In this document: positions 17,918 to 31,820 of the stretch, one piece after another
How positions within the stretch are numbered: the stretch's first letter is position 1
How the letters are laid out: each line of letters starts with the position of its first letter
Source of the DNA: Solirubrobacterales bacterium
GTDB taxonomy: Bacteria > Actinomycetota > Thermoleophilia > Solirubrobacterales > Solirubrobacteraceae
Length of the DNA stretch: 36,088 nucleotides
Reading direction: 5' to 3'
Assembly (NCBI GenBank): GCA_027451345.1
Contig: DAIDJO010000097.1
Location: 1 to 36,088 of the forward strand
Notes under the pieces: model-generated
What the model was told of the DNA's origin: nothing
What the model saw: the letters and a program-made list of their open reading frames with translations, nothing else
Databases searched by the model: none
Made by a program: the position numbers and the translations under genes

Positions 17918-18114
17918 TGTCGTCTCGCGCGCGCGAGGAGGAGGACGAGGAGCTGATCATGTTCCTCGAGCGCGACCAGCTCGCGGCGGATCGGCGCCGG
18001 CCGCTGCCGCCGGCCGAGATCGGCTGGCGGGCCCACACAGCCCTCTGGTCGCTGCGCATCTTCGTCCTGATCGTCGGGGCGATGGTGATCTACACGTTCT
18101 GCGCTCAGCTCTGA
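17917..18114 (+). CDS. small single-pass membrane protein coupled to the Nramp gene
   Basis: The 65-residue product has an acidic start (REEEDEELIMFLERDQLAADRR), a linker, and one C-terminal transmembrane helix (LRIFVLIVGAMVIYTFCA, about 45-62). Its ATG overlaps the transporter stop by one base (TGATG), so translation is coupled. It could be an accessory subunit or stabiliser of the transporter; there is no known family. It overlaps the convergent permease gene by 10 bp. Confidence 0.7.
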   Translation: MSSRAREEEDEELIMFLERDQLAADRRRPLPPAEIGWRAHTALWSLRIFVLIVGAMVIYTFCAQL

Positions 18115-18929
18115 GCGGCGGAGCTGCGCGATCCCCGGCGCGACCCGCCGGCCCGCGCCGGGCTCGTGCCGAGCCGGGCCGCGAGGAAGGCCGCCGCGCC
18201 GAGGCTGCCGACGAAGAACCCGATCGGCCATTCGGTGAGGTAGGCGAGGGCGGTCGCGCTCCACACGATCGCCAGCGCGGTGATCACGGAGAGGCTCAGC
18301 GCGCGCCCCGGTGTCCCGGCGAGAGAGCGCGCGGTGGCGGCCGGGGCCACGAGCACGCTGAAGATGAGGGTCGTGCCGACCACCGGCACCGTCATCGTCG
18401 TGGCGAGGGCGACGAGCAGCAGGAAGGCGAGGTCGAGCGTCACCGCCCGCGCGCCCACCACCGCCTCCGGCAGGGCGGACGCGAGCAGCAGCGGGCGCCA
18501 GAGCGTCGCCAGCGCCGCCAGGCAGACGGCCGTGAGCGCGGCGGTCGGGAGCAGCTCGCCGCGCCCGACGGCGAGCACCTCGCCGAAGAGCAGGGCGAAG
18601 ATCGACGAGGCGGGCTCGGCGCTCAGGCTGACGAAGAGCGCTCCGAGGCCGAGCAGCAGCACGAGCGCGAGCGCCGTGCCGACGTCCCGCCGTCCGCGGT
18701 GGCTGAGCCCGGCGATGCCGAACGCTCCCAGGACGGCGAAGAGGCCGAGTCCGAGCAGCGTGGAGACGCCGACCAGGGTGGCGCCGGCGGCGCCGGCGAA
18801 CGAACCGCTGGGGATCGCGTGGGCGGCAAAGGCGGCCCCGCGGAGCACCACGAAGAAGCCGATCGCGCCGCCGACGACGGCGACCATCGTCCCCACGATC
18901 CAGGCGTCGGGCATCGTGCCGCTGAACAT
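18105..18929 (-). CDS. metal ABC transporter permease (ZnuB-like), second
   Basis: The 274-residue integral membrane protein of the ABC-3 (ZnuB/MntB/TroC) family has about eight helices. Recognisable segments are GFFVVLRGAAFAAHAIPSGSFAGAAGATLVG, SHRGRRDVGTALALVL and [31 protein letters not shown]. The C-terminal tail is Arg/Ser/Gly-rich. It is the last gene of the znu-like operon, 4 nt after the other permease, so the channel may be a heterodimer of both. Confidence 0.88.
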   Translation of the reverse strand: MFSGTMPDAWIVGTMVAVVGGAIGFFVVLRGAAFAAHAIPSGSFAGAAGATLVGVSTLLGLGLFAVLGAFGIAGLSHRGRRDVGTALALVLLLGLGALFVSLSAEPASSIFALLFGEVLAVGRGELLPTAALTAVCLAALATLWRPLLLASALPEAVVGARAVTLDLAFLLLVALATTMTVPVVGTTLIFSVLVAPAATARSLAGTPGRALSLSVITALAIVWSATALAYLTEWPIGFFVGSLGAAAFLAARLGTSPARAGGSRRGSRSSAAQS

Positions 18930-18933
18930 GGCC

Positions 18934-19806
18934 CTACCTCCCGCGGCCGGGTCGGTGCGTCCAGGCTCCGGCGAGGAGATAACTGAGGACGACGAGGGCG
19001 ACGATGAAGAAGCTGGCCGGCCAGCCGTGGTGCAGCGGCGGCCAGTAGTAGCTGTCCCAGGCGAGCAGCAGCCCGCCCCAGGTGCAGGCGAGACCGATCA
19101 GCGCGGCGGCGAGGAGGGCGCGCGCGGGGCGGCTGGTCAGGCGCAGGGCGCTCGCCGCCGGTCCGACGACGAGTGCGGTGGAGAGGATCGCCCCGATCGT
19201 CTCGGCGGCGAGGGCGACGGCCGTGGCGAGCGCCAGCAGGTAGGCGAACCCCACCAGGCGGGCGGAGATCCCGCGGGCGGCGGCGAGCTCGGGGCTGATG
19301 CTCACGAGCAGGAGCGGGCGGTAGATCACCGCGAGCAGGAGCACCGCCGTGCCGCCCAGGAGCAGAACGAGCGGGAGGGCCGTCGCCGGTATGGCGAAGA
19401 TGGAGCCGAAGAGGATCGTCGCGGTGGCTCCGCTCGCGCTCTCGCGGCTGCTGGCGAGGTAGAGGAACAGCGCGGTGAGTCCGAAGCCGAGCCCGAGCAC
19501 GATGCCGGTCGCGACGTCCCGGCCGCGGGCGCGCTGCACGCCGATCAGCTCGAGCACCGTGGCCGCCGCGGCCGAGAAGGCGACGAAGCCTGCGAGCGGC
19601 CCGGCGCCGACCAGGAAGGCGCTCGACCCGCCGGAGGCGCCGATGTCCCCCACCGCCTCGGCCGCAAACGACTGGCCGCGCAGCACCGTGAAGACGCCGA
19701 CGAGCGCGGCGACGACGGTCACCGCGCCGCCCAGCTCGACGGCGGCCCGGACGACCGGGCTGGCGAAGAACCCGGGTTCGACGATCGCTCGCAGTACCGC
19801 GCCCAT
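18934..19806 (-). CDS. metal ABC transporter permease (ZnuB-like), first
   Basis: The 290-residue ABC-3 family permease has about eight helices: GVFTVLRGQSFAAEAVGDIGASGGSSAFLVG, RGRDVATGIVLGLGFG, RGISARLVGFAYLLALATAVALAAETIGAILSTALVVGPAASAL. It pairs with the adjacent ATPase and the second permease. Six nucleotides separate it from the ATPase gene, so the operon is tight. Substrate Zn or Mn, judged from the binding protein and the Zur-type regulator. Confidence 0.88.
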   Translation of the reverse strand: MGAVLRAIVEPGFFASPVVRAAVELGGAVTVVAALVGVFTVLRGQSFAAEAVGDIGASGGSSAFLVGAGPLAGFVAFSAAAATVLELIGVQRARGRDVATGIVLGLGFGLTALFLYLASSRESASGATATILFGSIFAIPATALPLVLLLGGTAVLLLAVIYRPLLLVSISPELAAARGISARLVGFAYLLALATAVALAAETIGAILSTALVVGPAASALRLTSRPARALLAAALIGLACTWGGLLLAWDSYYWPPLHHGWPASFFIVALVVLSYLLAGAWTHRPGRGR

Positions 19807-19812
19807 CGCCGC

Positions 19813-20625
19813 TCAGAATGCTCCGTCGTGGTGGTGAGGATGGCTCGGCTCGGCGTCGTCGCTGTCGCCGGCGATGACGAGCACGCGCCCGCCGACCCGG
19901 ATCACCTCGACGCGGTGTCCGTAGAGACGGCTGAGCACGTCCGGCCGCACCACCTCCTCGGCGGTGCCACAGGCGGCGCGGCCGTCCGCCAGGTAGATGA
20001 CGCGGTCCATCGCCGGCAGCAGCGCGTTCATCTCGTGGGCCGAGATGAGGACGGCGACCCGCTGCTCGCGGGCGACCCGCGCGAGCAGGTCGACGACCTC
20101 CCGCGCGCTGCGCAGGTCGAGGTTCGCGAGCGGCTCGTCGAGCAGGAGCAGGCGCGGCCGGCTGACGAGCGCGTGGGCGATCAGGATGCGCTGCTGCTCG
20201 CCGCCCGACAGCCGCCCGACCCGCTCGTCGGCCACGGCCTCCGCGCCGACCGCCCGCAGGATCTCCGCCACCCGCCGGCGCCGCTCCCGGTTTGGCAGCG
20301 GGAAGCCGAGCCGGTGCCCGTCGAGGCCGAGCGCGACGAGATCGCGGCCGCGCACCGGCATGTCGGGGTCGAGGAGGAACTTCTGCGGCACGTACCCGAC
20401 GGCCCGGTGGCCGGCCACGTCCGGCAGCAGGACGGCGCCGCGCGTCGGGGAGAGCTGTCCGAGGATGACCCGCATCAGCGTCGTCTTCCCCGCGCCGTTG
20501 GAGCCGATCAGGCCCGTCAGGGTGCCCGCCGGGAGCTCGAAGCGCACCTCGTCGAGCACTCGCCGGCCCCCGAGCTCGACGGTCACGTCCTGCACCCGCA
20601 GGCCCACATCGCCCCCGAGGCTCAT
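19813..20625 (-). CDS. znuC: metal ABC transporter ATPase (ZnuC-like)
   Basis: The 270-residue ABC ATPase has Walker A (GSNGAGKTT), Q-loop (VPQKF), signature LSGGEQQR, Walker B (RLLLLDEPLANLD) and H-loop (ISAHEM). The short C-terminus ends HPHHHDGAF, a His-rich tail seen in some zinc importers that may sense metal. Its ATG overlaps the stop of the binding-protein gene (ATGA), so translation is coupled. The true start is the ATG at 20625; the open frame beyond it lies inside the binding-protein gene. Confidence 0.9.
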   Translation of the reverse strand: MSLGGDVGLRVQDVTVELGGRRVLDEVRFELPAGTLTGLIGSNGAGKTTLMRVILGQLSPTRGAVLLPDVAGHRAVGYVPQKFLLDPDMPVRGRDLVALGLDGHRLGFPLPNRERRRRVAEILRAVGAEAVADERVGRLSGGEQQRILIAHALVSRPRLLLLDEPLANLDLRSAREVVDLLARVAREQRVAVLISAHEMNALLPAMDRVIYLADGRAACGTAEEVVRPDVLSRLYGHRVEVIRVGGRVLVIAGDSDDAEPSHPHHHDGAF

Positions 20626-21572
20626 CGGGCCAGGCTCGTGGTCGATCGTCCGGTCGAGACGGCGCGGTCGAGCGCCGCGAGCTCCGCGAGCATCCAGGAC
20701 TGGTAGTCGTAGCCCTGGGGCATCGTCTCGTACACCGCCACCTCCGGGATGTGGCGCGCCGCCGCGGCGCGCAGGAACGACTGCGTCACCGTGTCGGTGA
20801 CCTGGCGGTTGTAGACGATCGCCCGGATCCGGCGGGTCTGGATGATCCGGTCCTCGGTCGTGAGATCCTGGGGGGCGGGATCGACCCCGTTCATCAGATC
20901 CGCCTGCAGGTTCCACGGGGTCAGGTTGCGCACCCCGGCGGCGCGCAGGAGGTCGTTGGCGACCGGCTCGGTGCTCGCCACCGGGACTCCGGCGTGCGCC
21001 CGCCGGAAGGCCGACAGCGCGGCGAAGACCGGGGCGAGCGCCCGCCGGAACCGCGCCTCCCGGGCGCGGAAATAGCGCGCGTGGGCGGGGGCGAGGCGGC
21101 CGAGGTCCCTGGCGACCGCCGCGGCGACATCGGCGACGGCGCGCGGGTTGTACCAGAGATGTGGGTTCGGGGTCGCCGCGGGGAGTCCGAGCAGCCGCTG
21201 CACGTCGATCACCCGCCGGCCGGGCGCGGGCGAGGCGGCTTCGAGCTGGGTCATGAAGGCGTCGTAGCCCAGGCCGTTCTGCACGATCAGCCGGGCCCCG
21301 GCGATCGTTCGCGCGACGCTCGGGCTGACCTCAAAGGTGTGCGGGTCGACGGCGGGATTGCGGAGGATCGCCGTCGTGGCGACGTAGCGGCCCCCGACCT
21401 GAGCGAGCACGTTCGCGTACTGGCTCTCGGCTCCGACGACGCTGATCCGTCCCCCGGACGCCGGTGGCCTCGACGCGGTCGCGCCGCAGCCGGCCACCGC
21501 GAGGGCCATCACCGCGAACGGCAGGAGCGCGAACGCGCGGCGTGGGTGGGGGTGGAGGCGGACGTGGAGCAT
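20622..21572 (-). CDS. znuA: metal ABC transporter substrate-binding lipoprotein (ZnuA/TroA-like)
   Basis: The lipoprotein of about 316 residues has a signal sequence with lipobox AVAGC. It is a periplasmic-type cluster A-I binding protein for Zn or Mn. Metal ligands visible are His in DPHTFEVSP, His in NPHLWYNP and Glu in VASTEPVAND, with acidic YETMPQG near the end. No Asp/His-rich loop like that of E. coli ZnuA is present. The chosen start is ATG 21572. A TTG three codons earlier (21581) is possible. It is divergent from the Fur/Zur-type gene across a Zur-like box. Confidence 0.88.
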   Translation of the reverse strand: MLHVRLHPHPRRAFALLPFAVMALAVAGCGATASRPPASGGRISVVGAESQYANVLAQVGGRYVATTAILRNPAVDPHTFEVSPSVARTIAGARLIVQNGLGYDAFMTQLEAASPAPGRRVIDVQRLLGLPAATPNPHLWYNPRAVADVAAAVARDLGRLAPAHARYFRAREARFRRALAPVFAALSAFRRAHAGVPVASTEPVANDLLRAAGVRNLTPWNLQADLMNGVDPAPQDLTTEDRIIQTRRIRAIVYNRQVTDTVTQSFLRAAAARHIPEVAVYETMPQGYDYQSWMLAELAALDRAVSTGRSTTSLAR

Positions 21573-21588
21573 CGTCGTCAACAGTAAC

Positions 21589-21613
21589 GATAATGATTCT
21601 GATTCTCATTATC
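21589..21613. promoter_or_regulatory. Zur/Fur-type operator
   Basis: Inverted repeat GATAATGA (21589-21596) and TCATTATC (21606-21613) with a 9-nt spacer, in the gap between the znuA-like gene (-) and the Zur-like gene (+). Its AT-rich sequence and AATGATT...CATT core match the general Zur/Fur box pattern. It overlaps the -35 region of the plus-strand promoter, so repression of both divergent units is expected. Confidence 0.7.
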
Positions 21614-21632
21614 ATCGGCGTGGTGAGAGCCC

Positions 21633-21638
21633 TATCAT
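21633..21638 (+). promoter_or_regulatory. -10 box TATCAT of the Zur-like gene, likely leaderless
   Basis: TATCAT ends 8 nt before the GTG at 21647 and no Shine-Dalgarno sequence is present, so the transcript may begin at the start codon. The Zur-like box lies 20 nt further upstream. Confidence 0.4.
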
Positions 21639-21646
21639 CCGCGAGC

Positions 21647-22129
21647 GTGAGCGCCACCGGCGAACTGACCCGCGAGCAGCGGGCATGGGTCGATCGCTCC
21701 CGCGCGCTGCTCCGCCAGGCGGGGCATCGGCGAGGGGCGGCTCGCGACGTGCTGATCGAGCTCTTCGCGCGCGAGGACTGCGCGCTGACCGTCCAGGAGA
21801 TCGACCGCCGTCTCGCGGCGTGGCGGCGCAGCGGCCTGGTGGACCGCCCGGTCGGCATCGCGAGCGTCTACCGCGGCGTCGAGGTGCTCCAGGACCTGCG
21901 CCTGGTCGCCCGCGTCGACCTCGGGGACGGCCTGGCCCGGTACGAGCGCGCCGCGCTCGAGCAGCATGACCACCATCACCACCACTTCGTGTGCGAGCGC
22001 TGCGCCCTGCTCGTGCCCTTCGACGACGACGCGCTCGAGCGGGCGATCGGCGCGCTCGAGCGTCGTCTCGGCTTCACCGCGACCGAGCACGAGGTCGTGC
22101 TCCGCGGGATCTGCCGGCACTGCCGCTGA
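21647..22129 (+). CDS. zur: Fur-family regulator, Zur-like
   Basis: The 160-residue repressor has a Fur-family winged helix (RRGAARDVLIELFAREDCALTVQEIDRRLAAWRR, IASVYRGVEVLQDLRLVARVDLGDGLARYE) and the metal-binding hallmarks DHHHHHFVCERC and a final CRHC: two CxxC pairs for a structural zinc. Fur family members bind DNA with metal; Zur is inferred from the divergent Znu-type operon. GTG 21647 is chosen because the frame upstream is an open shadow of the promoter. Final residues are CRHCR. Confidence 0.85.
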   Translation: MSATGELTREQRAWVDRSRALLRQAGHRRGAARDVLIELFAREDCALTVQEIDRRLAAWRRSGLVDRPVGIASVYRGVEVLQDLRLVARVDLGDGLARYERAALEQHDHHHHHFVCERCALLVPFDDDALERAIGALERRLGFTATEHEVVLRGICRHCR

Positions 22130-22245: not shown

Positions 22246-22593
22246 GTGGCGTCAGGCATCCAACGAGGGCTCCGCCGTTCCGGGCGGCGTCTGCTCCGCA
22301 GGGCGCGTCGCCGCCGCAGGGGCCCGCTCGCTGGGATGCTCGGTCGGCTCCGGGACGCGGCCGTCTGGACCGACCTCTCCGGCGTGAGGGGCGTTGTCCT
22401 CGGCGCAACGCTCGCCGCCCTGGTTCCGCTCGCGCTGCGATCGGGTAGGACGAGGGAACCGCCGGCTGAGGAGCCCCCTCCCGAGGGCCCGCTCGACGAC
22501 GACTTCTGGTCCAGGGTCTCGCACGCGGGGACGAGCCCACGGCGGGTGAGACAGCGACCGCGGTCGCGCAGTCGAAACCAACATGGACGGTGA
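22246..22593 (+). CDS. gas-vesicle-operon small membrane-associated protein, unknown
   Basis: The 115-residue protein is probably the first gene of the gas-vesicle transcript. A very basic N-terminus (RGLRRSGRRLLRRARRRRRG) precedes a hydrophobic stretch (GVVLGATLAALVPLAL, about 52-67), an acidic Pro/Glu segment (EEPPPEGPLDDDFWSRV) and a basic Arg/Ser tail. It starts with GTG after a strong GGGAGG site. No family is recognised. The charge pattern and single hydrophobic segment suggest it lies on a membrane or a vesicle surface. It overlaps the following frame by 11 nt if ATG 22583 is used there. Confidence 0.6.
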   Translation: MASGIQRGLRRSGRRLLRRARRRRRGPLAGMLGRLRDAAVWTDLSGVRGVVLGATLAALVPLALRSGRTREPPAEEPPPEGPLDDDFWSRVSHAGTSPRRVRQRPRSRSRNQHGR

Positions 22594-22600
22594 GCCAGGC

Positions 22601-23137
22601 ATGCCAATCGATATTCGCCGGTGCGCGGTGGCCGCGGCCCACGCGGCCCTGACCGAGGCGTTCGCGCCCACACCGACCCCGCCACCGCACCGCCGCCGGC
22701 TGCGCCCGCTGCGGGCCATCCTGCTCGGGGTCGGGATCGTCACGACGACCCGGGTGGCGCTGAGCCCCGACCGCCGGCAGGAGTTGCTCGACGCGCTGGC
22801 CAGCCGTGTGCCGCTGCAGGAGCTGCTCGACGAGCTCCGGCGCGAGGAGGACGCGGACCTCGACGACCCCGAGGGCGGTGACGAGGAACCCGAGGGCGGC
22901 GGCGAGGAACCCGAGGGCGGCGACGAGCCGGACGCGGGCGAGCAGGAACCCGGCGAGGACCTCGGGGTGGCACGGGCCGCCTCGACGCCCGCGGACACGA
23001 CCGCCGAACCGGCCGGCCCGCCGGTCCGGCGCAGCCAGGCGGCCGAGAGCTCGCGGCGACGCCGCGCCAGCCGCGCGCGAGGGGCCGGCGAGGGCCAACG
23101 CCCGCGCACGCCTCCCCACCGGGGATCGCGGGCGTGA
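22601..23137 (+). CDS. gas-vesicle-operon protein with acidic repeat
   Basis: The 178-residue product has a hydrophobic N-terminal stretch (LRAILLGVGIVTTTRVAL, about 35-52), a helix (PDRRQELLDALASRVPLQELLDELRREED), three tandem 7-residue acidic repeats (PEGGDEE type, encoded by 22868-22930), and a basic C-terminus rich in Arg/Ser/Gly. An alternative start is ATG 22583, but GGTGA fits ATG 22601 better. No known family. It shares general architecture with its two neighbours (one hydrophobic segment plus charged tails). Confidence 0.6.
   Translation: MPIDIRRCAVAAAHAALTEAFAPTPTPPPHRRRLRPLRAILLGVGIVTTTRVALSPDRRQELLDALASRVPLQELLDELRREEDADLDDPEGGDEEPEGGGEEPEGGDEPDAGEQEPGEDLGVARAASTPADTTAEPAGPPVRRSQAAESSRRRRASRARGAGEGQRPRTPPHRGSRA
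22868..22930. repeat. three 21-bp tandem repeats inside the acidic-repeat gene
   Basis: Three consecutive 21-bp units (22868-22888, 22889-22909, 22910-22930) encode the repeated PEGG(D/G)EE. In-frame expansion or contraction would change the acidic tail length. Confidence 0.8.
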
Positions 23138-23211: not shown

Positions 23212-23739
23212 ATGGCCGCGACCACGTCAGGCGGAAAGAGCGGAAGCAGTCGTACGTCAGGGCGCTCGCGCTCGACGTCGAGTTCGAGCGCAGGCAGGAG
23301 TGCATCGGGAACCGGGAGCGGTCGAGCCTCGCGCGGGCGATCCGGGTCGAATCAGAACGGTGCGGCGGCCGGCCAGGGCGGCGCCGCACAGAGCAGCCGG
23401 GAGGGCCTCATGAGCAGCCTGCCGCATCTGGGCGCCCCGAGCATGCCGAGCATGCAGAGCATGCCGAGCATGAACGGGACGGTCAAGACCGTCCTCACGA
23501 CCGTGGTGCTGCCGGTGACCACGGCCGCGGCCGGCGTGGCCGGCGGCATCGTGCTGGCTCGGACCAAGCTCCGCCGCCAGCGCAAGATCCTCGGCGTTCC
23601 CCTGCCGGGAGCCAAGGTCGACCTGGCCGATTTCACCAAGCAGGTGGGCGAGGCGGGGCGTCAGCTCGGCCACCTCGCGGGCGAGGTGAAGGCCGCGCGG
23701 GAGCGAGCGGAGGAAATCGGCCGAGCCATCGGCGGGTGA
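23212..23739 (+). CDS. Ser/Arg/Gly-rich gas-vesicle-operon membrane protein
   Basis: The 175-residue product has a low-complexity N-terminal half rich in Ser, Gly and Arg (about residues 6-55), a PSM-repeat (PSMPSMQSMPSMNG), a hydrophobic segment (TVVLPVTTAAAGVAGGIVLA, about 96-115), and a C-terminal part with LRRQRKILGVPLPG and a helix (VGEAGRQLGHLAGEVKAARERAEEIGRAI). Its SR/SG-rich tail closely mirrors the C-terminal tail of the nearby GvpA-like protein. Unknown family; probably an accessory gas-vesicle component. Confidence 0.65.
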   Translation: MAATTSGGKSGSSRTSGRSRSTSSSSAGRSASGTGSGRASRGRSGSNQNGAAAGQGGAAQSSREGLMSSLPHLGAPSMPSMQSMPSMNGTVKTVLTTVVLPVTTAAAGVAGGIVLARTKLRRQRKILGVPLPGAKVDLADFTKQVGEAGRQLGHLAGEVKAARERAEEIGRAIGG

Positions 23740-23748
23740 GGATCTGAG

Positions 23749-24681
23749 ATGGCGCAGGCGGAGCTCCGTCAGATGAGCGAGGTGCGCGAGCAACATGCCG
23801 TGCGCCCACACCGGCCGCGCCCGGCGCGGAAGCCCGGGGTGCCGCAGTCGGCAAGTCCGGCGAGCGCGGCGACACCGAAGCGCCGCGGCTCCGGCGACGC
23901 CGGGGGTCCGGCCGACGGGCGTCCAGGCCTCCGCTCCGGGACCGGGCCCGGGGGCGGCGGGTCGGGTGCGGGTCTGCCCGAACGGCTCGAGGGCGAGGTG
24001 CGCGAGCGCCTCGGGGGTGAGGGCATCTCGCTCCCCACCCCCCACCTGCCGAGGTGGTCCCGGCTCGCCCTCTGGCTGCTACGGCGCCTGGGCCGGCACG
24101 AGCTGCGTCGACTCGCGGAGGCCGCCGCCGCCTCCCTGCCCGACCATCTCCCACCCACCGCGAGTGAAGCCGTCGAGCGGCTCGGCCAGGCCTCCCGGAC
24201 GGTCGAGCCGCGCCGGGGCGGACTCGGCACGGTGCGGCCGTCGCTCCCGATCCAGGAGGCGGTCGAGGTGGCGGTCCCGCTGGAGTTCGCCTGGCGACGC
24301 TGGATGGAGCTGGGCTTCCTGCCGGAGGGGGTCGACGAGGTGGCCGACATCACGCGGACCGCGGACGGTCTGCGTGGTCGGGCCGAGGGCGGCGACTGGT
24401 CCGCGGAGATCCTCGACGAGCGCGAGGAGGAGAGCTTCGCCTGGCGATCCACCGCCGGGTCCGACTGCGCGGGCCTGGTCACCTTCCACCGTCTCGGTGA
24501 GCGTCTGACGCGGATCGAGCTGACCCTCGACGTGATGCCGCGCAACCTGGCCGAGACGGCCCTGCTGCTGACCCACCTCGCCGACCGGCGGGCGCTCCGG
24601 CGTCTGCGCAGGTTCAAGGCGGAGCTCGAGGTCGTCAGCCCCGATGTGTACGCCGGCGACGGAGACTCCCCGTCGCGCTAA
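23749..24681 (+). CDS. SRPBCC-domain protein of the gas-vesicle operon
   Basis: The 310-residue product has a disordered, Gly/Pro/Arg-rich N-terminus (about 1-75), a helical region, and a C-terminal SRPBCC/START-like domain (about 160-300): IQEAVEVAVPLEFAWRRWMELGFLPEGV, ITRTADGLRGRAEGGDW, FAWRSTAGSDCAGLVTFHRLGERLTRIELTLDV. The cavity fold usually binds a hydrophobic ligand. Similar SRPBCC proteins neighbour gas-vesicle genes in actinobacteria, but their role is unclear. It begins 9 nt after the Ser/Arg-rich gene and precedes gvpA. Confidence 0.72.
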   Translation: MAQAELRQMSEVREQHAVRPHRPRPARKPGVPQSASPASAATPKRRGSGDAGGPADGRPGLRSGTGPGGGGSGAGLPERLEGEVRERLGGEGISLPTPHLPRWSRLALWLLRRLGRHELRRLAEAAAASLPDHLPPTASEAVERLGQASRTVEPRRGGLGTVRPSLPIQEAVEVAVPLEFAWRRWMELGFLPEGVDEVADITRTADGLRGRAEGGDWSAEILDEREEESFAWRSTAGSDCAGLVTFHRLGERLTRIELTLDVMPRNLAETALLLTHLADRRALRRLRRFKAELEVVSPDVYAGDGDSPSR

Positions 24682-24703
24682 CCCACGAGGGAGGTAATCC
24701 CTG

Positions 24704-25246
24704 ATGCCAATGGCCATGCAGAGAGGAGCGGGCGCGGGCTACGTACAGCGCGGCGGCGCCGGGCTCTACGAGATTGTGGACGTGCTCCTCGACAAGGGGC
24801 TCGTGATCGACGTCTTCGTGCGCGTGTCGCTCGTCGGCATCGAGCTGCTCACGGTCGACGCCCGGATCGTGCTCGCCAGCGTCGACACGTACCTGCGCTT
24901 CGCCGAGGCCGTCAACCGCCTCGACCTGCTCCAGTCCTCCAACGACGAGGGTCTGCCCGAGCTGATGGACGACATGACCGAGGGCGGCGCCGAGAACAAG
25001 ACCAGGGGCGTGCTGCAGGGCGCCAGGGAAACCCTGTTCGGCTCCGGCGGCGGTGACGAGGAGGGCGGCGGCGAGGAGGCGGACGGCGAGGAGGCGGACG
25101 GCGGGGAGGACGGCGCCTCCCGCGCCTCGCGCGGCGGATCCTCCGGGTCGCGGACGAGCAGCGCGTCCGCCCGCAGCGGCGGTTCCGGCTCGGGTGGCCG
25201 CTCCCGTTCGCGCAGCACCTCGAGTCGAGGGCGCTCGAGCTCGTGA
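24704..25246 (+). CDS. gvpA: gas-vesicle structural protein GvpA with long C-terminal tail
   Basis: This is the major shell protein, 180 residues instead of about 70-75. The conserved core is residues 18-80 ([51 protein letters not shown]), nearly canonical. The tail has an acidic part ([23 protein letters not shown]) and a Ser/Arg/Gly-rich end. GGGAGGTAA precedes the ATG. In known GvpA the C-terminus is short, and longer variants are related proteins such as GvpB or GvpS, so this tail is unusual. Its stop overlaps gvpF as GTGA. Confidence 0.92.
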
Positions 25247-25983
25247 GCACCGCGCCCGTCTATGTGTACGGGGTGGTCGCGGCGGCGCCGCGCGGCCTCG
25301 GTGCCGCCGCGGCCAGGCAGCCCGGGATCGGCGGCCGGCCCGTTCGGCTCGTGGTGAGCGGCGGGGTCGGTGCGGTCGTCAGCGGCGTGCCCGACGACGC
25401 GCCCGGGTTCGGCCGCGAGGCGCTCACCGCCCACAGCGACGTGCTCGAGGCGGTGCTCGCCGACACGACCGTGCTGCCGATGCGCTTCGGGGTGATCATG
25501 GACGGCGAGCGGGCGCTCCGCGATGAGTTCCTCGCGCCCCACCGCGCCGAGCTGCTCGCGCAGCTCGACCGGCTCGACGGGCGCGTCGAGCTGACGTTGC
25601 GGGCGACCTACGAGGAGGCGCCCCTGCTGCGCGAGATCATGGCCGAGGAGGCGGAGATCGCGGCGTTCCACGCGACGGGGCGGGGAACGTACCTCAAGCA
25701 GATCCGTCTCGGCGAGATGATCGCGGCCGCCATCGACGCCCGCCGGCGCCGGGATGCCGAGGAGATCCTGGCCCGGCTCACGCCGTTGGCGGAGGACGTG
25801 GCGCTCGGCGAGCCGCGCCACGAGCGGATGGCGCTCAGCGCGTCCTTCCTGATCCCCCGCGAGGGGATGGACGCCTTTGACGCGGCCGTCGACGATGTCG
25901 GCCGCCGCCAGCAGCGACGCATGCGCCTGCGCTACACCGGTCCGCTGCCCCCACACTCCTTCGTCCGTCTCGAGGCGGTGTGA
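25243..25983 (+). CDS. gvpF: gas-vesicle protein GvpF/L family, first copy
   Basis: The 246-residue product begins [12 protein letters not shown] and has [25 protein letters not shown] (the conserved catalytic-like TVLPMRFG region), LRRLAEE-type helices, and ends with [16 protein letters not shown]. GvpF/L proteins assist assembly and bind GvpA. GTG start overlaps the gvpA stop (GTGA). It is the first of three GvpF/L copies here. Confidence 0.92.
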
Positions 25984-25984
25984 G

Positions 25985-26263
25985 ATGGGCCTGATCACCG
26001 GGGTGCTCACGCTGCCCCTGGCCCCGGTCCGGGGGCTCGCCTGGGTGGCGGGTCAACTGCAGGACGAGGCCGAGCGTCAGCTCTACGACGAGGAGCGCAT
26101 CCGGGCCGAGCTGCTCCAGCTCGAGCTTGACGGCGACGATGGTCGGCTCGACGAGCGGGAGCGGGCCGCGCGGGAGGGCGAGCTCCTGGACCGGCTCGCC
26201 GTCGCCGCCGCGCGCCGGCGCGAGCTGATGCACCCCGACCCCGTGGAGGATGGCGATGGCTGA
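25985..26263 (+). CDS. gvpG: gas-vesicle protein GvpG
   Basis: The 92-residue protein (MGLITGVLTLPLAPVRGLAWVAGQL, then an acidic coiled-coil-like helix and a LDRLAVAAARRRELM tail) matches GvpG, a small assembly protein with a characteristic LPLAPV...WVA start. ATG 25985 sits 1 nt after the GvpF stop. It overlaps gvpO by 8 nt. Confidence 0.9.
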   Translation: MGLITGVLTLPLAPVRGLAWVAGQLQDEAERQLYDEERIRAELLQLELDGDDGRLDERERAAREGELLDRLAVAAARRRELMHPDPVEDGDG

Positions 26264-26558
26264 GTCCAACGCCTCCTCCCGACGCCGCTCGGGCAAGGGG
26301 CTGACGGCGACCGAGGCGATCCAGCGCGTGCGCCGGGAGCTTCCCGAGCTGCTCGGCCACCCGGTCGAGTCGGTCCTCGGCGTGGAGCGCGGCGAGGATG
26401 GGGACTGGCAGGTGACGGTGCAGGTCGTCGAGCTCGCCCGGATCCCCAACTCCACCGACGTGCTCGGCGCCTACGAGGTGAGCCTCGACGGCGACGGCGA
26501 GCTCTCCGGCTACCGGCGCCGGCGCCGCTACACCCGCGGACAGGCGGACGACGACTGA
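26256..26558 (+). CDS. gvpO: gas-vesicle protein GvpO
   Basis: The 100-residue product has a disordered Ser/Arg-rich start and the GvpO core (ATEAIQRVRRELPELLGHPVESVLGVERGEDGDWQVTVQVVELARIPNSTDVLGAYEVSLDGDGELSGYRRRRRYTRG). GvpO is needed for vesicle formation in some clusters. ATG 26256 has GGAGG 6 nt upstream; ATG 26250 is alternative. Its stop overlaps the gvpJ ATG (TGATG). Confidence 0.92.
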   Translation: MAESNASSRRRSGKGLTATEAIQRVRRELPELLGHPVESVLGVERGEDGDWQVTVQVVELARIPNSTDVLGAYEVSLDGDGELSGYRRRRRYTRGQADDD

Positions 26559-26932
26559 TGCCCGGGCTCGAACCGGAGAGCCTCGGCCGGCCGCTCTCCT
26601 ATCACCGCGCCGACATGGACCCCCGGGGCGGGGGGCCCGCGAATCTCGCCGACATCCTCGAGCGGGTGCTCGACAAGGGGATCGTGATCGCCGGGGACGT
26701 GCAGATCCGGCTGCTCGACATCGAGCTGCTCACCATCCGGCTGCGTCTGCTCATCACCTCCGTCGACCGGGCCCGGGAGATGGGCATCAACTGGTGGGAG
26801 GGAGATCCGATGCTCTCGGGTGGGGCCAAACAGCTCCAGTCCGAGAACCGGGAGCTGCGTGAGCGCCTCGCGCGCCTCGAGCGGACGATCGGCGTGGGCG
26901 ACGGCGAGACGATGACGGCGAAGGATGAGTGA
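26558..26932 (+). CDS. gvpJ: gas-vesicle GvpA-family protein GvpJ
   Basis: This 124-residue GvpA paralogue has the core LADILERVLDKGIVIAGDVQIRLLDIELLTIRLRLLITSVDRAREMGINWWEGDP, then a coiled coil (QLQSENRELRERLARLERTIG). It is a minor shell component or nucleator. The start overlaps the gvpO stop, and the 3' end overlaps the next gene by 8 nt. Confidence 0.92.
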   Translation: MPGLEPESLGRPLSYHRADMDPRGGGPANLADILERVLDKGIVIAGDVQIRLLDIELLTIRLRLLITSVDRAREMGINWWEGDPMLSGGAKQLQSENRELRERLARLERTIGVGDGETMTAKDE

Positions 26933-27716
26933 GACCGGGCTCTACGTCTACGGGCTCGTGCCGCGTGGCGCGCTGGAGCGGGCGCCGGACCTGCCGGGGG
27001 TCGACTCCGCTCGCCCGGTGGAGCTGCGGTGCGAGGGTGGGATCTGCGCGATCGTCTCCCGGGTCGACCTCGACCGCTTCGACGAGGAGCCGCTGCGCGA
27101 GCGCCTCGCCGACATGGACTGGGTCGAGCGAACGGCCCGCCGCCACCAGGAGGTGCTTGACGCCGTGCTGGCCGCGTGCACGCCGATCCCCATGCGCCTC
27201 TGCACCGTCTACCAGGACGACGCCGGGCTGCGCCGGATGCTCGACGAGCACCAGGAGGGCCTGCTCGCCGCGCTGACCGAACTGAGCGGAACGCTCGAGT
27301 GGGGCGTCCAGGCCTTCCACGTGCCGGAGACCCCGGCGGCCCCGCCCCGCCCGGGAGGGCAGCCCGGGGAGACGGCCAGCGGCACCGCCTATCTGCAGAC
27401 GAGGCTCCGGCAGCGACACGCCGCCGAGCACGCGGAGGCGGAGATCGCCCGGGCCTGCGAGGAACTGCACGACGCGCTCAGCGGGCTGGCGCTGGCCGCC
27501 CGCCTGGGCGCGCCCCAGCGCCCCGAGGCGAGCGGTCGCGACACCCCCATGGTCCTCAACGCGGTCTACCTCGTGGCCAACGCGGACCGCGCGCGTTTCA
27601 CGCAGCGGACCGCGCAGCTCGGGTCGGCGCTCGCGCCACGGGGGGTGGCGCTGCGGCTCACCGGCCCGTGGGCGCCGTACAGTTTCGTCCCCGCCGCCGT
27701 GGGAGGGGCGCGGTGA
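26925..27716 (+). CDS. gvpL: gas-vesicle protein GvpL/F family, second copy
   Basis: The 263-residue product starts TGLYVYGLVPRGALERAP, has RRHQEVLDAVLAACTPIPMRLCTVYQDDAG and ends with LTGPWAPYSFVP. The helical middle is longer than in the first copy. It is probably the GvpL-type chaperone or minor component. Its ATG overlaps gvpJ, and its stop is overlapped by the GTG of the next GvpA paralogue. Confidence 0.92.
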   Translation: MSETGLYVYGLVPRGALERAPDLPGVDSARPVELRCEGGICAIVSRVDLDRFDEEPLRERLADMDWVERTARRHQEVLDAVLAACTPIPMRLCTVYQDDAGLRRMLDEHQEGLLAALTELSGTLEWGVQAFHVPETPAAPPRPGGQPGETASGTAYLQTRLRQRHAAEHAEAEIARACEELHDALSGLALAARLGAPQRPEASGRDTPMVLNAVYLVANADRARFTQRTAQLGSALAPRGVALRLTGPWAPYSFVPAAVGGAR

Positions 27717-27892
27717 GCGCCGTGACCGTCGCCGATCGGGACGTCGCTCTGATCGATCTCCTCGACCGGCTGCTCCAGGGCGGCGTCGTCATTCAGGGGC
27801 AGATCACGCTCTGCGCCGCCGACATCGATCTCGTCGCCCTCGACCTCCGCGTGGTCGTGTCCGCCATCGACAGGCTGGCGGCACCGAAATGA
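27713..27892 (+). CDS. gvpS: small GvpA-family protein (GvpS/GvpM-like)
   Basis: This 59-residue GvpA-family paralogue reads ALIDLLDRLLQGGVVIQGQITLCAADIDLVALDLRVVVSAIDRLA. It has only the core fold and no tail. GvpS is the actinobacterial name for the third GvpA family protein; GvpM is the archaeal counterpart. The GTG overlaps the previous stop (GTGA) and the stop overlaps the next ATG (ATGA). Confidence 0.85.
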   Translation: MSAVTVADRDVALIDLLDRLLQGGVVIQGQITLCAADIDLVALDLRVVVSAIDRLAAPK

Positions 27893-28530
27893 GCGTGCTG
27901 GTCTACGCGATCAGCCGCGACGACGCCCGGGCCCCGGCCGCCGCCGAGCTGCAGGAGATCTGCGCCGCGGGCCTACGCGCCCTCGCCGAGCCGGTGCGCG
28001 AGCCCCTCAGGGCCGATCTCGCGCAGCTCGTCCGCTACGAGGAGACGGTCGAGACGGTGATGGCGCACCACACGATCCTGCCGATGCGCTTCGGCAGCGT
28101 CGTGGAGGACGAGAACCGGGTGCGGGCCCTGCTCACCTCGCGCCGGCGGGAGTTCGCGGCGGCGCTCGCGCACCTCGACGGGGCCGTGGAATTCGGCGTG
28201 CAGGCGACGCACGCCGCCGCGGCGCCCGGGGAGCCCGCGGCCGCCTCCGGGGCCGCGTACCTGCACGCCCGCCTGATCGAGCAGCAGGCTCGGCGCGAGC
28301 TGCGGGACTGGCTCGACGACACCCTGCGCGAGACCGCCCGCGAGCGGGTCGTCCGGGCGGCGCCGAGCCCCGGCCACCCCGCCTCGGTCAGCGCCGCGTA
28401 TCTCGTCGACCACGGCCAGGAACCGGCGTTCGTCGAGCGGCTCACGGAACTCGCCGACCGCGCCGAGCACCGCCTCAGCTGGAGCGGGCCCTGGCCGCCG
28501 TACTCCTTCGTCGGGGGCCTCGAGGCATGA
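27889..28530 (+). CDS. gas-vesicle protein GvpF/L family, third copy
   Basis: The 213-residue product is the most divergent copy: it starts SVLVYAISRDDARAPA (no YVYG), has VMAHHTILPMRFGSVVEDE and ends SWSGPWPPYSFVGG. It is likely an assembly factor like the other two. The ATGA overlaps on both sides imply coupled translation with the GvpS-like gene and gvpK. Confidence 0.9.
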   Translation: MSVLVYAISRDDARAPAAAELQEICAAGLRALAEPVREPLRADLAQLVRYEETVETVMAHHTILPMRFGSVVEDENRVRALLTSRRREFAAALAHLDGAVEFGVQATHAAAAPGEPAAASGAAYLHARLIEQQARRELRDWLDDTLRETARERVVRAAPSPGHPASVSAAYLVDHGQEPAFVERLTELADRAEHRLSWSGPWPPYSFVGGLEA

Positions 28531-28790
28531 CCCGGGTCTCCGCCGACCCCGAGCAGGTCGAGCGTGGGCTCGTGCAGCTCGTGCTGACGATCGTCGAGCT
28601 CCTGCGCCAGCTGATGGAGCGCCAGGCCGTGCACCGGATGGAGGCCGGCGCCCTGAGCGACGAGGAGGTCGAGCGGCTCGGGCAGACGTTCATGGCGCTC
28701 TCCGAGCGCATGCAGGAGCTGAAGGACCACTTCGGCCTGACCGACGCCGATCTCAACCTGAACCTGGGTCCCCTCGGGGACCTGCTCTAG
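28527..28790 (+). CDS. gvpK: gas-vesicle protein GvpK
   Basis: The 87-residue product has DPEQVERGLVQLVLTIVELLRQLMERQAVHRMEAGALSDEEVERLGQTFMALSERMQELKDHFGLTDADLNLNLGPLGDLL, complete GvpK. It ends with the typical LNLNLGPLGDLL. GvpK is a small helical accessory factor. The start overlaps the third GvpF/L gene. Confidence 0.93.
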   Translation: MTRVSADPEQVERGLVQLVLTIVELLRQLMERQAVHRMEAGALSDEEVERLGQTFMALSERMQELKDHFGLTDADLNLNLGPLGDLL

Positions 28791-30296: not shown

Positions 30297-31820
30297 ATGG
30301 CCCAGATGACGCGCGGTGAGGCGGTCGAGCACGTCGACGTGCTGATCATCGGCGCGGGCATCTCCGGGATCGGGTGCGCCCACTACCTGCAGCGACACCA
30401 TCCCGAGCGCCGGTACCGGATCCTCGAGGCGCGCGAGCGGATCGGCGGGACCTGGGACCTCTTCCGCTATCCCGGGATCCGCTCCGACTCGGACCTGCAC
30501 ACGTTCGGCTTCGAGTTCAAGCCGTGGGTGAGCGAGAACGCGATCGCCGACGGCGCCGAGATCCTCGAGTACCTGCGCGAGGCCGCGCGCGAGGAGGGCA
30601 TCGACCAGCACATCCGCACCGGGCATCGGGTCACCGCCGCCTCCTGGTCCTCGGCCGACGCCTGCTGGTGGGTCACCGTCCAGCGCCACGGGGCGCCGCC
30701 GCTGCGCATGAGCGCGAGCTGGATCTTCGCCGGGACGGGGTACTACCGCTACGACGGCGGCTACCTGCCGGAGCTGCCCGGCCTGCCGGCGTTCGCCGGC
30801 CGGGTCGTGCACCCCCAGCGGTGGCCGCAGAACCTCGACCATGCCGGCAAGCGGGTGCTGATCGTGGGCAGCGGAGCCACCGCCGTGACGCTCGTGCCGG
30901 CCATGGCGCGGACGGCCGCGCACGTGACGATGCTCCAGCGCTCCCCGAGCTACGTGATGTCGATCCCGCGCCGCGACGCCCTCGCCATGCGGCTGCAGCG
31001 CCGGCTGGGGCCGGAGCGTGGTTACGCCTGGACGCGGCGCAAGAACATCCTGCTGCAGACGGGCCTCTACCAGTTCTGCCAGCGGTTTCCCCGCCAGGCG
31101 CGGCGCCTGATCCGCCGCCTGACCGCCCAGCAGCTGCCGCCGGGCTATCCGGTCGATCTCCACTTCAATCCGCGCTATGACCCGTGGGACCAGCGCCTCT
31201 GCTTCGTGCCGGGCGGCGACCTGTTCCGGTCGATCCGGGAGGGACGGGCGTCGGTGGTCACCGACGAGATCGAGACGTTCACCGCCACGGGGGTGCGGCT
31301 CGCCTCCGGGCAGGAGCTCGAGGCCGACATCGTCGTCACCGCCACGGGGCTGCGCCTGCAGGTCTTCGGGGGCATCGCGCTCGACCTCGACGGCCGCCCC
31401 GTCGACATCAGCCGCCGGGTGGCCTTCCGCGGCATGATGCTCGACGGCGTCCCGAACCTCGCCTTCCTGATCGGGTACACCAACGCCAGCTGGACGCTGA
31501 AGGTCGGTCTCGTGTGCGAGCACCTGTGCCGCCTGCTCTCCCACATGGACGAGCTCGGGGCCGACACGTGCGTCGCCGAGCTCCCGTACCCGAACCTGCC
31601 GACGCGCCCGCTCCTCGACTTCCAGGCCGGGTACGTCCAGCGGTCCCTGCACGAGCTGCCGCGGCAGGGGACGCACTCGCCCTGGCAGCTCCCGATGAGC
31701 TACCGGACGGATGCACGGGTGCTGGGCGGGCCGATCGAGCACCGCAACCTGCACTTCTCCCGGGTGCGGGAGATCGAGCCCGACGATCAGGCGCTGACGG
31801 CGACGAGCCTGACCGTCTGA
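30297..31820 (+). CDS. flavin-containing monooxygenase (Baeyer-Villiger type)
   Basis: The 507-residue FAD/NADPH enzyme opens with VLIIGAGISGIGCAHYL (FAD site), then ILEARERIGGTWDLFRYPGIRSDSDLHTFGFEF (BVMO family). The second dinucleotide motif is VLIVGSGATAVTLVPAM, and the fingerprint-like region lies around HPQRWPQNLDHAGK. The C-terminal half has DIVVTATGLRLQVFGG. It likely adds one oxygen to ketones or sulfides, like EthA. Start is the ATG at 30297; the frame is open upstream through the aminotransferase. It overlaps the convergent protease gene by 34 bp. Confidence 0.9.
   Translation: MAQMTRGEAVEHVDVLIIGAGISGIGCAHYLQRHHPERRYRILEARERIGGTWDLFRYPGIRSDSDLHTFGFEFKPWVSENAIADGAEILEYLREAAREEGIDQHIRTGHRVTAASWSSADACWWVTVQRHGAPPLRMSASWIFAGTGYYRYDGGYLPELPGLPAFAGRVVHPQRWPQNLDHAGKRVLIVGSGATAVTLVPAMARTAAHVTMLQRSPSYVMSIPRRDALAMRLQRRLGPERGYAWTRRKNILLQTGLYQFCQRFPRQARRLIRRLTAQQLPPGYPVDLHFNPRYDPWDQRLCFVPGGDLFRSIREGRASVVTDEIETFTATGVRLASGQELEADIVVTATGLRLQVFGGIALDLDGRPVDISRRVAFRGMMLDGVPNLAFLIGYTNASWTLKVGLVCEHLCRLLSHMDELGADTCVAELPYPNLPTRPLLDFQAGYVQRSLHELPRQGTHSPWQLPMSYRTDARVLGGPIEHRNLHFSRVREIEPDDQALTATSLTV

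What the first reader, a model, noticed from the sequence alone, without database searches (positions are those of the whole stretch)
24704..25246. GvpA with a ~110-residue acidic and Ser/Arg-rich tail
The core is almost canonical GvpA, yet the protein is 2.5 times the normal length. The tail has an acidic block followed by an SR/SG-rich block, so the vesicle surface might be decorated with a charged, disordered brush. That could control clustering, attachment or phosphorylation.
Basis: partly seen in the sequence, partly recalled or inferred. Interest (0 to 1): 0.72.

Follow-up and report, generated by a model that had tools for sequence, protein, structure and literature searches.

The report
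Gas-vesicle shell protein with disordered tail
A soil actinobacterium's gas-vesicle shell protein carries an unusually long, unstructured acidic-then-arginine/serine tail that is really encoded and kept by selection; it is an extreme version of a tail found on many actinobacterial relatives, and neighbouring vesicle genes encode charged tails too, which suggests (untested) that the tails organise the vesicle surface.

Summary
The ORF 24704-25246 is real: a 180-aa GvpA in a gvp cluster, with no sign of a frameshift. Long-tailed GvpA is already a curated subfamily (NCBIfam NF006872, 143 positions; 157 bits, cut-off 151). The tail is modular: residues 74-111 are a conserved, predicted-helical segment; only 112-180 looks disordered (acidic, 11 D/E; then Ser/Arg/Gly, 9 R and 19 S). 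It is the longest of 91 tails collected and its S+R density exceeds 292 sampled genes of its genome. Three close pairs of relatives show dN<dS in the acidic+SR part. In two genomes a second gvp cluster encodes a GvpA without the SR block. Beyond the finding: a companion gene (23212-23739) has an S/R-rich N-terminus, and 50 of 80 named actinobacterial gvp loci carry a GvpY-like protein; all 50 of its tails tested run acidic-then-basic. Best reading: an exterior polyampholyte brush that organises vesicles or recruits these proteins. Partner and mechanism are inferred, and outside the window's family the companion is mostly missing. New variant of a known kind; moderate interest.

The parts
24704..25246 (+). 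gvpA, 180 aa, long-tailed shell protein
24764..24922 (+). GvpA core (residues 21-73): predicted alpha-beta-beta-alpha, matched by PF00741 (21-58) and by sequence to solved GvpA chains 7r1c and 8gbs
24923..25036 (+). tail module 1 (residues 74-111): GLPxL...GGAxxKTKGxLEGAKE-type segment, predicted helices 84-94 and 96-111 (low confidence); a segment of this kind found by pattern in 81 of 91 GvpA-type ORFs collected
25037..25111 (+). tail module 2 (residues 112-136): acidic/glycine block, 11 D/E and 0 K/R
25112..25243 (+). tail module 3 (residues 137-180): Ser/Arg/Gly block, 9 R, 19 S, 0 D/E, ending SSRGRSSS
23749..24681 (+). gene directly upstream; homologues (E<=1e-3) in 50 of 80 named gvp loci (GvpZ-like by position; SRPBCC-type by recollection only, no Pfam match)
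23212..23739 (+). companion protein, 175 aa: S/R/G-rich N-terminus (low-confidence/disordered), then GVAGG..L.R..RKxLGVPxP hydrophobic/helical domain; GvpY-like position beside the Z-like gene and weak GvpY-like similarity
22583..23137 (+). 184-aa ORF with acidic block then S/R-rich end; no convincing homologue among the loci held at that time, so weak evidence
25243..25983 (+). gvpF/L (PF06386), start overlaps the gvpA stop
25985..26263 (+). gvpG (PF05120)
26250..26558 (+). gvpO (PF05800)
26558..26932 (+). gvpJ-like GvpA paralogue (PF00741), no SR tail
26925..27716 (+). gvpF/L (PF06386)
27668..27889 (+). gvpS-like GvpA paralogue (PF00741)
27889..28530 (+). gvpF/L (PF06386)
28527..28790 (+). 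gvpK (PF05121)

Best explanation
The protein is the major shell protein GvpA of an actinobacterial gvp cluster. Its core builds the vesicle wall. Residues 74-111 form a helical segment lying on or just outside the wall, and residues 112-180 project into the cytoplasm as a dense, disordered polyampholyte brush (acidic near the wall, Ser/Arg outermost). With one GvpA per about 12.07 A x 48.8 A of wall (geometry of the B. megaterium wall, PMC9994262) there would be one tail per ~5.9 nm2. Shown here: gene, modular anatomy, predicted disorder, dN<dS in the tail, acid-then-base order in most relatives tested, and S/R-rich or acid-then-base tails on accessory proteins of such clusters. Inferred: the brush faces outward in this organism, and its function is spatial organisation, that is electrostatic cross-bridging between vesicles and recruitment of GvpY-type accessory proteins (in this window the S/R-rich protein at 23212-23739, whose positive N-terminus could pair with the GvpA acidic block).
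For: Core and subfamily membership. AF2: helices 84-94 and 96-111, residues 112-167 below pLDDT 50. C-terminus of GvpA faces the exterior and tolerates substitutions (passages of PMC10961726). Same kind of tail in the same frame in relatives; six of 91 tails end in RGRS plus 0-2 further S. Acidic+SR part dN 0.14/dS 0.85, 0.19/0.50, 0.10/0.85 in three close pairs. Ser encoded by TCC, TCG, AGC and AGT, so not a DNA-repeat expansion. Basic after acidic in 63 of 74 GvpA tails tested (24 at p<=0.05) and in 50 of 50 GvpY-like tails tested of 51 ORFs (38 at p<=0.01). Within the window's family, clusters whose GvpA tail has 4 or more SR/RS dipeptides have the companion on the same contig in 8 of 8 cases that can be judged; clusters with 3 or fewer have it in 0 of 7 (threshold set after looking). 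Published analogue: GvpU/GvpT act on the elongated GvpA C-terminus in B. megaterium (review passage).
Against: No interaction, localisation or clustering was measured, and it is not shown that this organism makes vesicles. Outside the window's family the link to the companion breaks down: G052, G053 and G060 (same order; GvpA tails with 17, 4 and 5 SR/RS) have no match to the companion model, G387 (13) has only a weak match on another contig, and L070 (12) has none in its 5.4-kb locus; G389 has a weak match beside a GvpA with only one SR/RS. In G052 an S/R-rich ORF does lie upstream of gvpA but is not matched by the model. Homologues of the companion domain occur in 9 of 399 class genomes without an NF006872 match; the five of these nine that I looked at also have S/R/K-rich N-termini, so that family is not gvp-specific. 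11 of 74 GvpA tails lack the acid-then-base order, eight of them in another family of the same class. The 8-of-8 against 0-of-7 contrast may reflect one cluster lineage. The tail is less constrained than the core (core dN 0.01-0.05 in the three pairs). Companion relation to GvpY is weak (hhalign probability 86.6). One paper could not confirm the GvpU effect (PMC11223475); GvpU is said to be confined to Bacillota.
Confidence: 0.4

Rival explanations
1. Generic solubilising or protective brush: the tail keeps a very hydrophobic shell protein soluble before assembly and keeps finished vesicles apart or hydrated under drought or salt, without any specific partner.
For: High charge, Gly and Ser content, predicted disorder, and length change with preserved composition; no companion match in several SR-tailed clusters of the same order; S. 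coelicolor gvp genes are reported as salt-induced (passage of PMC5839063).
Against: Does not explain the order acid-then-base, the same order in 50 of 50 GvpY-like tails tested, or a tail-poor GvpA in a second cluster of the same genomes (L016, L018).
Confidence: 0.29
2. Built-in GvpC substitute: the functional part is the helical module 74-111, which runs over the ribs and stiffens the wall; the disordered end is secondary.
For: No GvpC repeat (PF01304) over the curated cut-off in any of 20 gvp-bearing genomes searched (4 of 20 have sub-threshold matches at E<=1); a module-1-like segment is in 81 of 91 GvpA-type ORFs.
Against: Explains module 1 but not modules 2-3; helix confidence is low (block means 51-54); several of the 20 genomes are incomplete.
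Confidence: 0.15
3. Anionic-polymer binding: the SR/RGR end binds RNA, DNA or polyphosphate and tethers vesicles to them.
For: Dense S/R/G sequence with RGRS at the GvpA end (6 of 91) and RGR[ST] in 5 of 8 companions (shuffle mean 1.0; related sequences, motif chosen after looking).
Against: Pfam and NCBIfam show only gas-vesicle families in this protein; the adjoining acidic block would compete.
Confidence: 0.08
4. Nitrogen store or neutral drift: charged tails accumulate without mechanical function.
For: PMC5839063 proposes that Arg/Glu/Pro-rich actinobacterial Gvp proteins are nitrogen storage (passage); S/R/K-rich proteins of the companion family exist outside gvp clusters.
Against: dN<dS in the acidic+SR part, ordered blocks, and SR-poor GvpA in second clusters of the same genomes.
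Confidence: 0.08

Closest known systems
NCBIfam NF006872 (PRK09368), long GvpA subfamily, 143 positions
   Same: Core plus module 1 and most of the acidic block; residues 16-133 match positions 12-129, 157 bits against a cut-off of 151
   Different: The last 47 residues (essentially the Ser/Arg/Gly block) lie beyond the match
B. megaterium GvpA/GvpB (7r1c) and Anabaena GvpA (8gbs)
   Same: Core sequence (E 1.5e-19 and 1.1e-17)
   Different: Chains of 88 and 71 residues without acidic/SR tail; the Foldseek search with the low-confidence full-length model ranks these two first but not significantly (E 0.37 and 0.2)
B. megaterium GvpU/GvpT clustering acting on the elongated GvpA C-terminus (Li et al. 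2024; not held, known through passages)
   Same: Proposed role of a GvpA C-terminal extension in vesicle organisation
   Different: No GvpU/GvpT search was made; the review says these are confined to Bacillota; this tail lies on a different, much longer GvpA
S. coelicolor gvp cluster with gvpO, A, F, G, Y, Z, J, L, S (SCO6499-SCO6507; table in PMC5839063)
   Same: Similar gene set; a Y-like and a Z-like gene side by side
   Different: Y-like and Z-like genes lie upstream of gvpA here; giving the GYLLGR family the name GvpY rests on position and was not checked against the S. coelicolor protein

Membership tests
GvpA shell protein (PF00741) | Gas_vesicle domain over the gathering score | tested here: met
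   45.8 bits against 25
GvpA shell protein (PF00741) | alpha-beta-beta-alpha core | tested here: met
   AF2 H21-31, E33-44, E47-59, H60-81, block pLDDT 74-83 in residues 21-70; a model, and its Foldseek matches to solved GvpA were not significant
GvpA shell protein (PF00741) | Incorporated in the vesicle wall | not testable with these tools
   needs purified vesicles
Long GvpA subfamily NF006872 | Score over the curated cut-off for the whole protein | tested here: met
   157 against 151 bits
Gas vesicle gene cluster | gvpA with F/L, G, J-like, K and S-like genes in one run | tested here: met
Gas vesicle gene cluster | gvpN present (a review calls it present in all clusters) | tested here: not met
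   0 of 20 gvp-bearing genomes over the cut-off; 19 of 20 have weak matches, as have 12 of 14 control genomes. The S. coelicolor list in PMC9501494 shows no gvpN either
GvpU/GvpT clustering system | GvpU and GvpT homologues in the cluster | not tested
   no search for them was made; the three unassigned upstream ORFs scanned gave no match at E<=0.001
GvpY-like (GYLLGR family) for the companion 23212-23739 | Sequence similarity of the hydrophobic/helical domain | tested here: inconclusive
   hhalign probability 86.6, E 4.5e-6 over 54 columns; HMM hits of the companion model to such ORFs are weak, e.g. L089 E 7.8e-4

The most novel reading that the evidence does not exclude
Actinobacterial gvp clusters encode a charge-patterned surface system: the shell protein and a GvpY-type accessory protein both carry acid-then-base disordered tails that recognise one another and condense vesicles into ordered arrays or onto a membrane, a counterpart of GvpU-driven clustering that arose separately; in Solirubrobacteraceae it has turned into matching Ser/Arg-rich brushes.
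Probability: 0.19. Interest if true: 0.72.

Novelty: new variant of a known kind. Interest (0 to 1): 0.45.

Why it matters
Soil actinobacteria carry gvp clusters whose use is unclear; PMC5839063 cites that disrupting them does not change the buoyancy of Streptomyces (passage). A natural GvpA with a long tail shows that a wall may bear ~100 extra residues per subunit, if the tail survives on the vesicle; that bears on engineered vesicles, where GvpA does not tolerate fluorescent-protein fusions (PMC10961726). The charged-tail pattern in several gvp proteins turns the question of what these clusters do into a testable interaction question.

Tried and rejected
Frameshift or mis-translation: rejected for the window (same frame and kind of tail in relatives, gene overlap with gvpF, dN<dS). 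L005 (G021) alone has a tail that looks shifted inside the SR block; not followed.

DNA-repeat expansion: rejected, mixed Ser and Arg codons.

Genome-wide S/R bias: not supported in 292 genes called in 20 stretches of G000. The crude gene caller cut the companion to start at 23410 and so missed its SR part, which hides one further S/R-rich window gene.

Fold search with the full GvpA model: nothing significant; 80 residues of the model are under pLDDT 50. No fold search was made with the companion model (low confidence). GvpN and GvpC searches: nothing over the cut-off. Weak Pfam/NCBIfam matches of the upstream ORFs (LcrG, MCP_Sipho, DUF2076; E 0.009-1.2, below the curated cut-offs) I take for chance. 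Literature: disordered GvpA (2 papers, neither opened); gvp in Thermoleophilia (10 of 167 listed, none of the ten holds 'gas vesicle'); GvpA with 'C-terminal extension' (one cyanobacterial paper, not opened). Searches gave the papers used; none of the passages I saw describes an SR-tailed GvpA, but I did not read any paper whole.

Full report
What is there. The ORF at 24704-25246 encodes 180 residues and lies in a gvp cluster that runs from at least 23212 to 28790: companion, Z-like gene, gvpA, gvpF/L, gvpG, gvpO, J-like, gvpF/L, S-like, gvpF/L, gvpK. PF00741 is found three times in the own genome (3.3 Mb in 133 contigs, 85% complete), all in this cluster. Of the four best named relatives two are labelled Solirubrobacteraceae or Solirubrobacterales and two only Actinobacteria; all four are metagenome-assembled genomes.

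Is the tail real? Yes. The stop codon overlaps the gvpF start, there is a ribosome-binding-like GGGAGGT before the ATG, and relatives encode the same kind of tail in the same frame. In three close pairs the acidic+SR part has dN 0.14/dS 0.85 (54 codons), 0.19/0.50 (41) and 0.10/0.85 (42), with core dN 0.05, 0.01 and 0.05; a fourth, distant comparison of the window with G018 gives 0.51/1.13 on 54 codons with an uncertain alignment. Serine is encoded by TCC, TCG, AGC and AGT, so the block is kept at the protein level.

How unusual is it? Relative to the 71-residue Anabaena chain the protein is 2.5 times as long, but NCBI already has a subfamily model of 143 positions for such GvpA, and this protein passes its cut-off (157 against 151 bits). 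Among 91 distinct complete GvpA-type ORFs taken from the loci held, the median tail after the core is 69 residues, 88 of 91 have 40 or more, and the window has the longest, 107. These 91 are not a random sample: they came from searches ranked by similarity. 60 of 91 have at most two SR/RS dipeptides; the window has 11 and the maximum is 17 in L013. In 20 stretches of the own genome (292 called genes, crude caller) none reaches the window GvpA's S+R density (0.65 against at most 0.42).

Anatomy. The tail has three parts. Module 1 (74-111) is a conserved GLPxL...KTKGxLEGAKE-type segment, found by a loose pattern in 81 of 91 ORFs and predicted helical with low confidence. Module 2 (112-136) is acidic. 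Module 3 (137-180) is Ser/Arg/Gly. Modules 2-3 look disordered (112-167 below pLDDT 50). In six of 91 tails the protein ends in RGRS plus 0-2 further S: the window and five members of its genus. Acid-then-base order holds in 63 of 74 tails tested, 24 at p<=0.05 by shuffling, and the window at 0 of 1000; 11 do not show it. Tails of related species are not independent.

An internal control. G022 and G023 (same genus) each have two gvp clusters. One GvpA has the SR tail (L008, L009; 14 and 12 SR/RS), the other ends after module 1 (L018, L016; none). G060, of another family, shows a similar but weaker contrast (L011 with 5, L017 with 2). So the brush belongs to the cluster type, not to the genome's general composition.

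Outside the coordinates. Two genes upstream (23212-23739) lies a companion with a positively charged S/R/G-rich N-terminus and a conserved C-terminal domain; homologues sit at the same place in close relatives, with S/R-rich parts of 89-184 residues in the eight rows aligned, three of them (L007, L008, L009) cut by the locus end. The upstream start is supported by L059 and L060, whose reading frames have no internal ATG. AF2 gives helices 93-119 and 138-174 and low confidence in 21-122. In the window's family, clusters whose GvpA tail has four or more SR/RS have the companion on the same contig in 8 of 8 cases that can be judged (G000, G007, G018, G021, G022-C284, G023-C32, G247, G384); G406 has it on another contig. 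Seven clusters with three or fewer (G022-C145, G023-C276, G003-C253, G003-C12, G030, G160, G303) have none. Left out: G009 (contig ends at gvpA; one SR/RS), G258 (GvpA tail not recovered) and the second cluster of G406 (short upstream side). The threshold was set after looking.

Against this, outside the family: in the same order G052, G053 and G060 have SR/RS-bearing tails (17, 4, 5) and no companion match; G387 (13) has a weak match on another contig; G389 has a weak match next to a GvpA with one SR/RS; named locus L070 (12) has none. G052 does have an S/R-rich ORF upstream of gvpA that the model does not match. In a class-wide sample 16 of 399 genomes match the companion model; the five strong matches (E<=6e-31) all lie in genomes with an NF006872 match (34 of 399 have one), two of the eleven weaker ones do, and nine do not; the five of these nine that I looked at have S/R/K-rich N-termini too. 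So the companion family is wider than gas vesicles.

A wider pattern. In 50 of 80 named actinobacterial gvp loci (plus one unnamed) I found an ORF of one family (hydrophobic GYLLGRTKK-type N-terminus) with a long charged tail; 30 of 80, among them the four closest relatives of the window, showed none within the DNA held. In all 50 tails tested of 51 ORFs the basic residues lie on average after the acidic ones, 38 at p<=0.01. By position it corresponds to gvpY of S. coelicolor, which PMC5839063 lists next to gvpZ (passages); I did not check the S. coelicolor protein itself. The companion is weakly similar to it (hhalign probability 86.6). The window ORF 22583-23137 also runs acid to S/R but had no hit better than E 0.18 among the loci held.

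GvpN and GvpC. Neither reaches the curated cut-off in any of 20 gvp-bearing genomes. A review calls GvpN present in all clusters, while the gene list for S. coelicolor in PMC9501494 has none.

Literature seen, all by passages only: PMC9994262, wall geometry, 12.07 A between monomers and 48.8 A pitch; PMC10961726, C-terminus outside, fluorescent-protein fusions not tolerated; PMC10903477, GvpU/GvpT and the elongated GvpA C-terminus of B. megaterium, said to be confined to Bacillota; [quoted passage not shown] PMC11223475, could not confirm the GvpU effect; PMC5839063, actinobacterial Gvp proteins rich in Arg, Glu and Pro, a nitrogen-storage proposal; also PMC9501494, PMC12081810, PMC12695634 and PMC10344784. 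Li et al. 2024 itself is not held.

Verdict. That the tail is an exterior brush is likely; that it organises vesicles together with accessory tails is the best mechanism I can offer, with moderate confidence and no direct test.

Noticed in passing
23212-23739 (+): S/R/G-rich companion protein with no Pfam or NCBIfam match at E<=0.001; its family also occurs in genomes of the class without an NF006872-type GvpA match.
   Followed up: partly
22583-23137 (+): ORF with an acidic Gly/Glu/Pro block followed by an S/R-rich end, no convincing homologue among the loci held.
   Followed up: partly
L068 5509-6468, L091 1371-2594 and 48 further named loci: GYLLGR-family (GvpY-like by position) proteins with long charged tails in actinobacterial gvp loci; L068 and L091 are strongly Ser/Arg-rich.
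   Followed up: partly
L016, L018 against L009, L008: Two gvp clusters in one genome (G023, G022): one GvpA with an SR brush, one without.
   Followed up: partly
window and 19 further gvp-bearing genomes: No GvpN over the curated cut-off in 20 of 20 genomes, although a review calls GvpN present in all clusters.
   Followed up: partly
L044, L045, L048, L051, L053, L055, L056: In another family of the same class each of these loci holds two GvpA genes, one of them with an Ala-rich hydrophobic tail segment.
   Followed up: no
L005 (G021): The SR block of this GvpA seems to change frame part-way; assembly error or real, not decided.
   Followed up: no
18105-22129: Upstream of the gvp cluster: ORFs that look like a metal ABC transporter (recalled, not searched) next to a Fur-family regulator (PF01475).
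   Followed up: no
31787-34528 (-): 913-aa ORF with a Ser/Thr/Gly-rich low-complexity linker, looks like a secreted serine peptidase (recalled, not searched).
   Followed up: no
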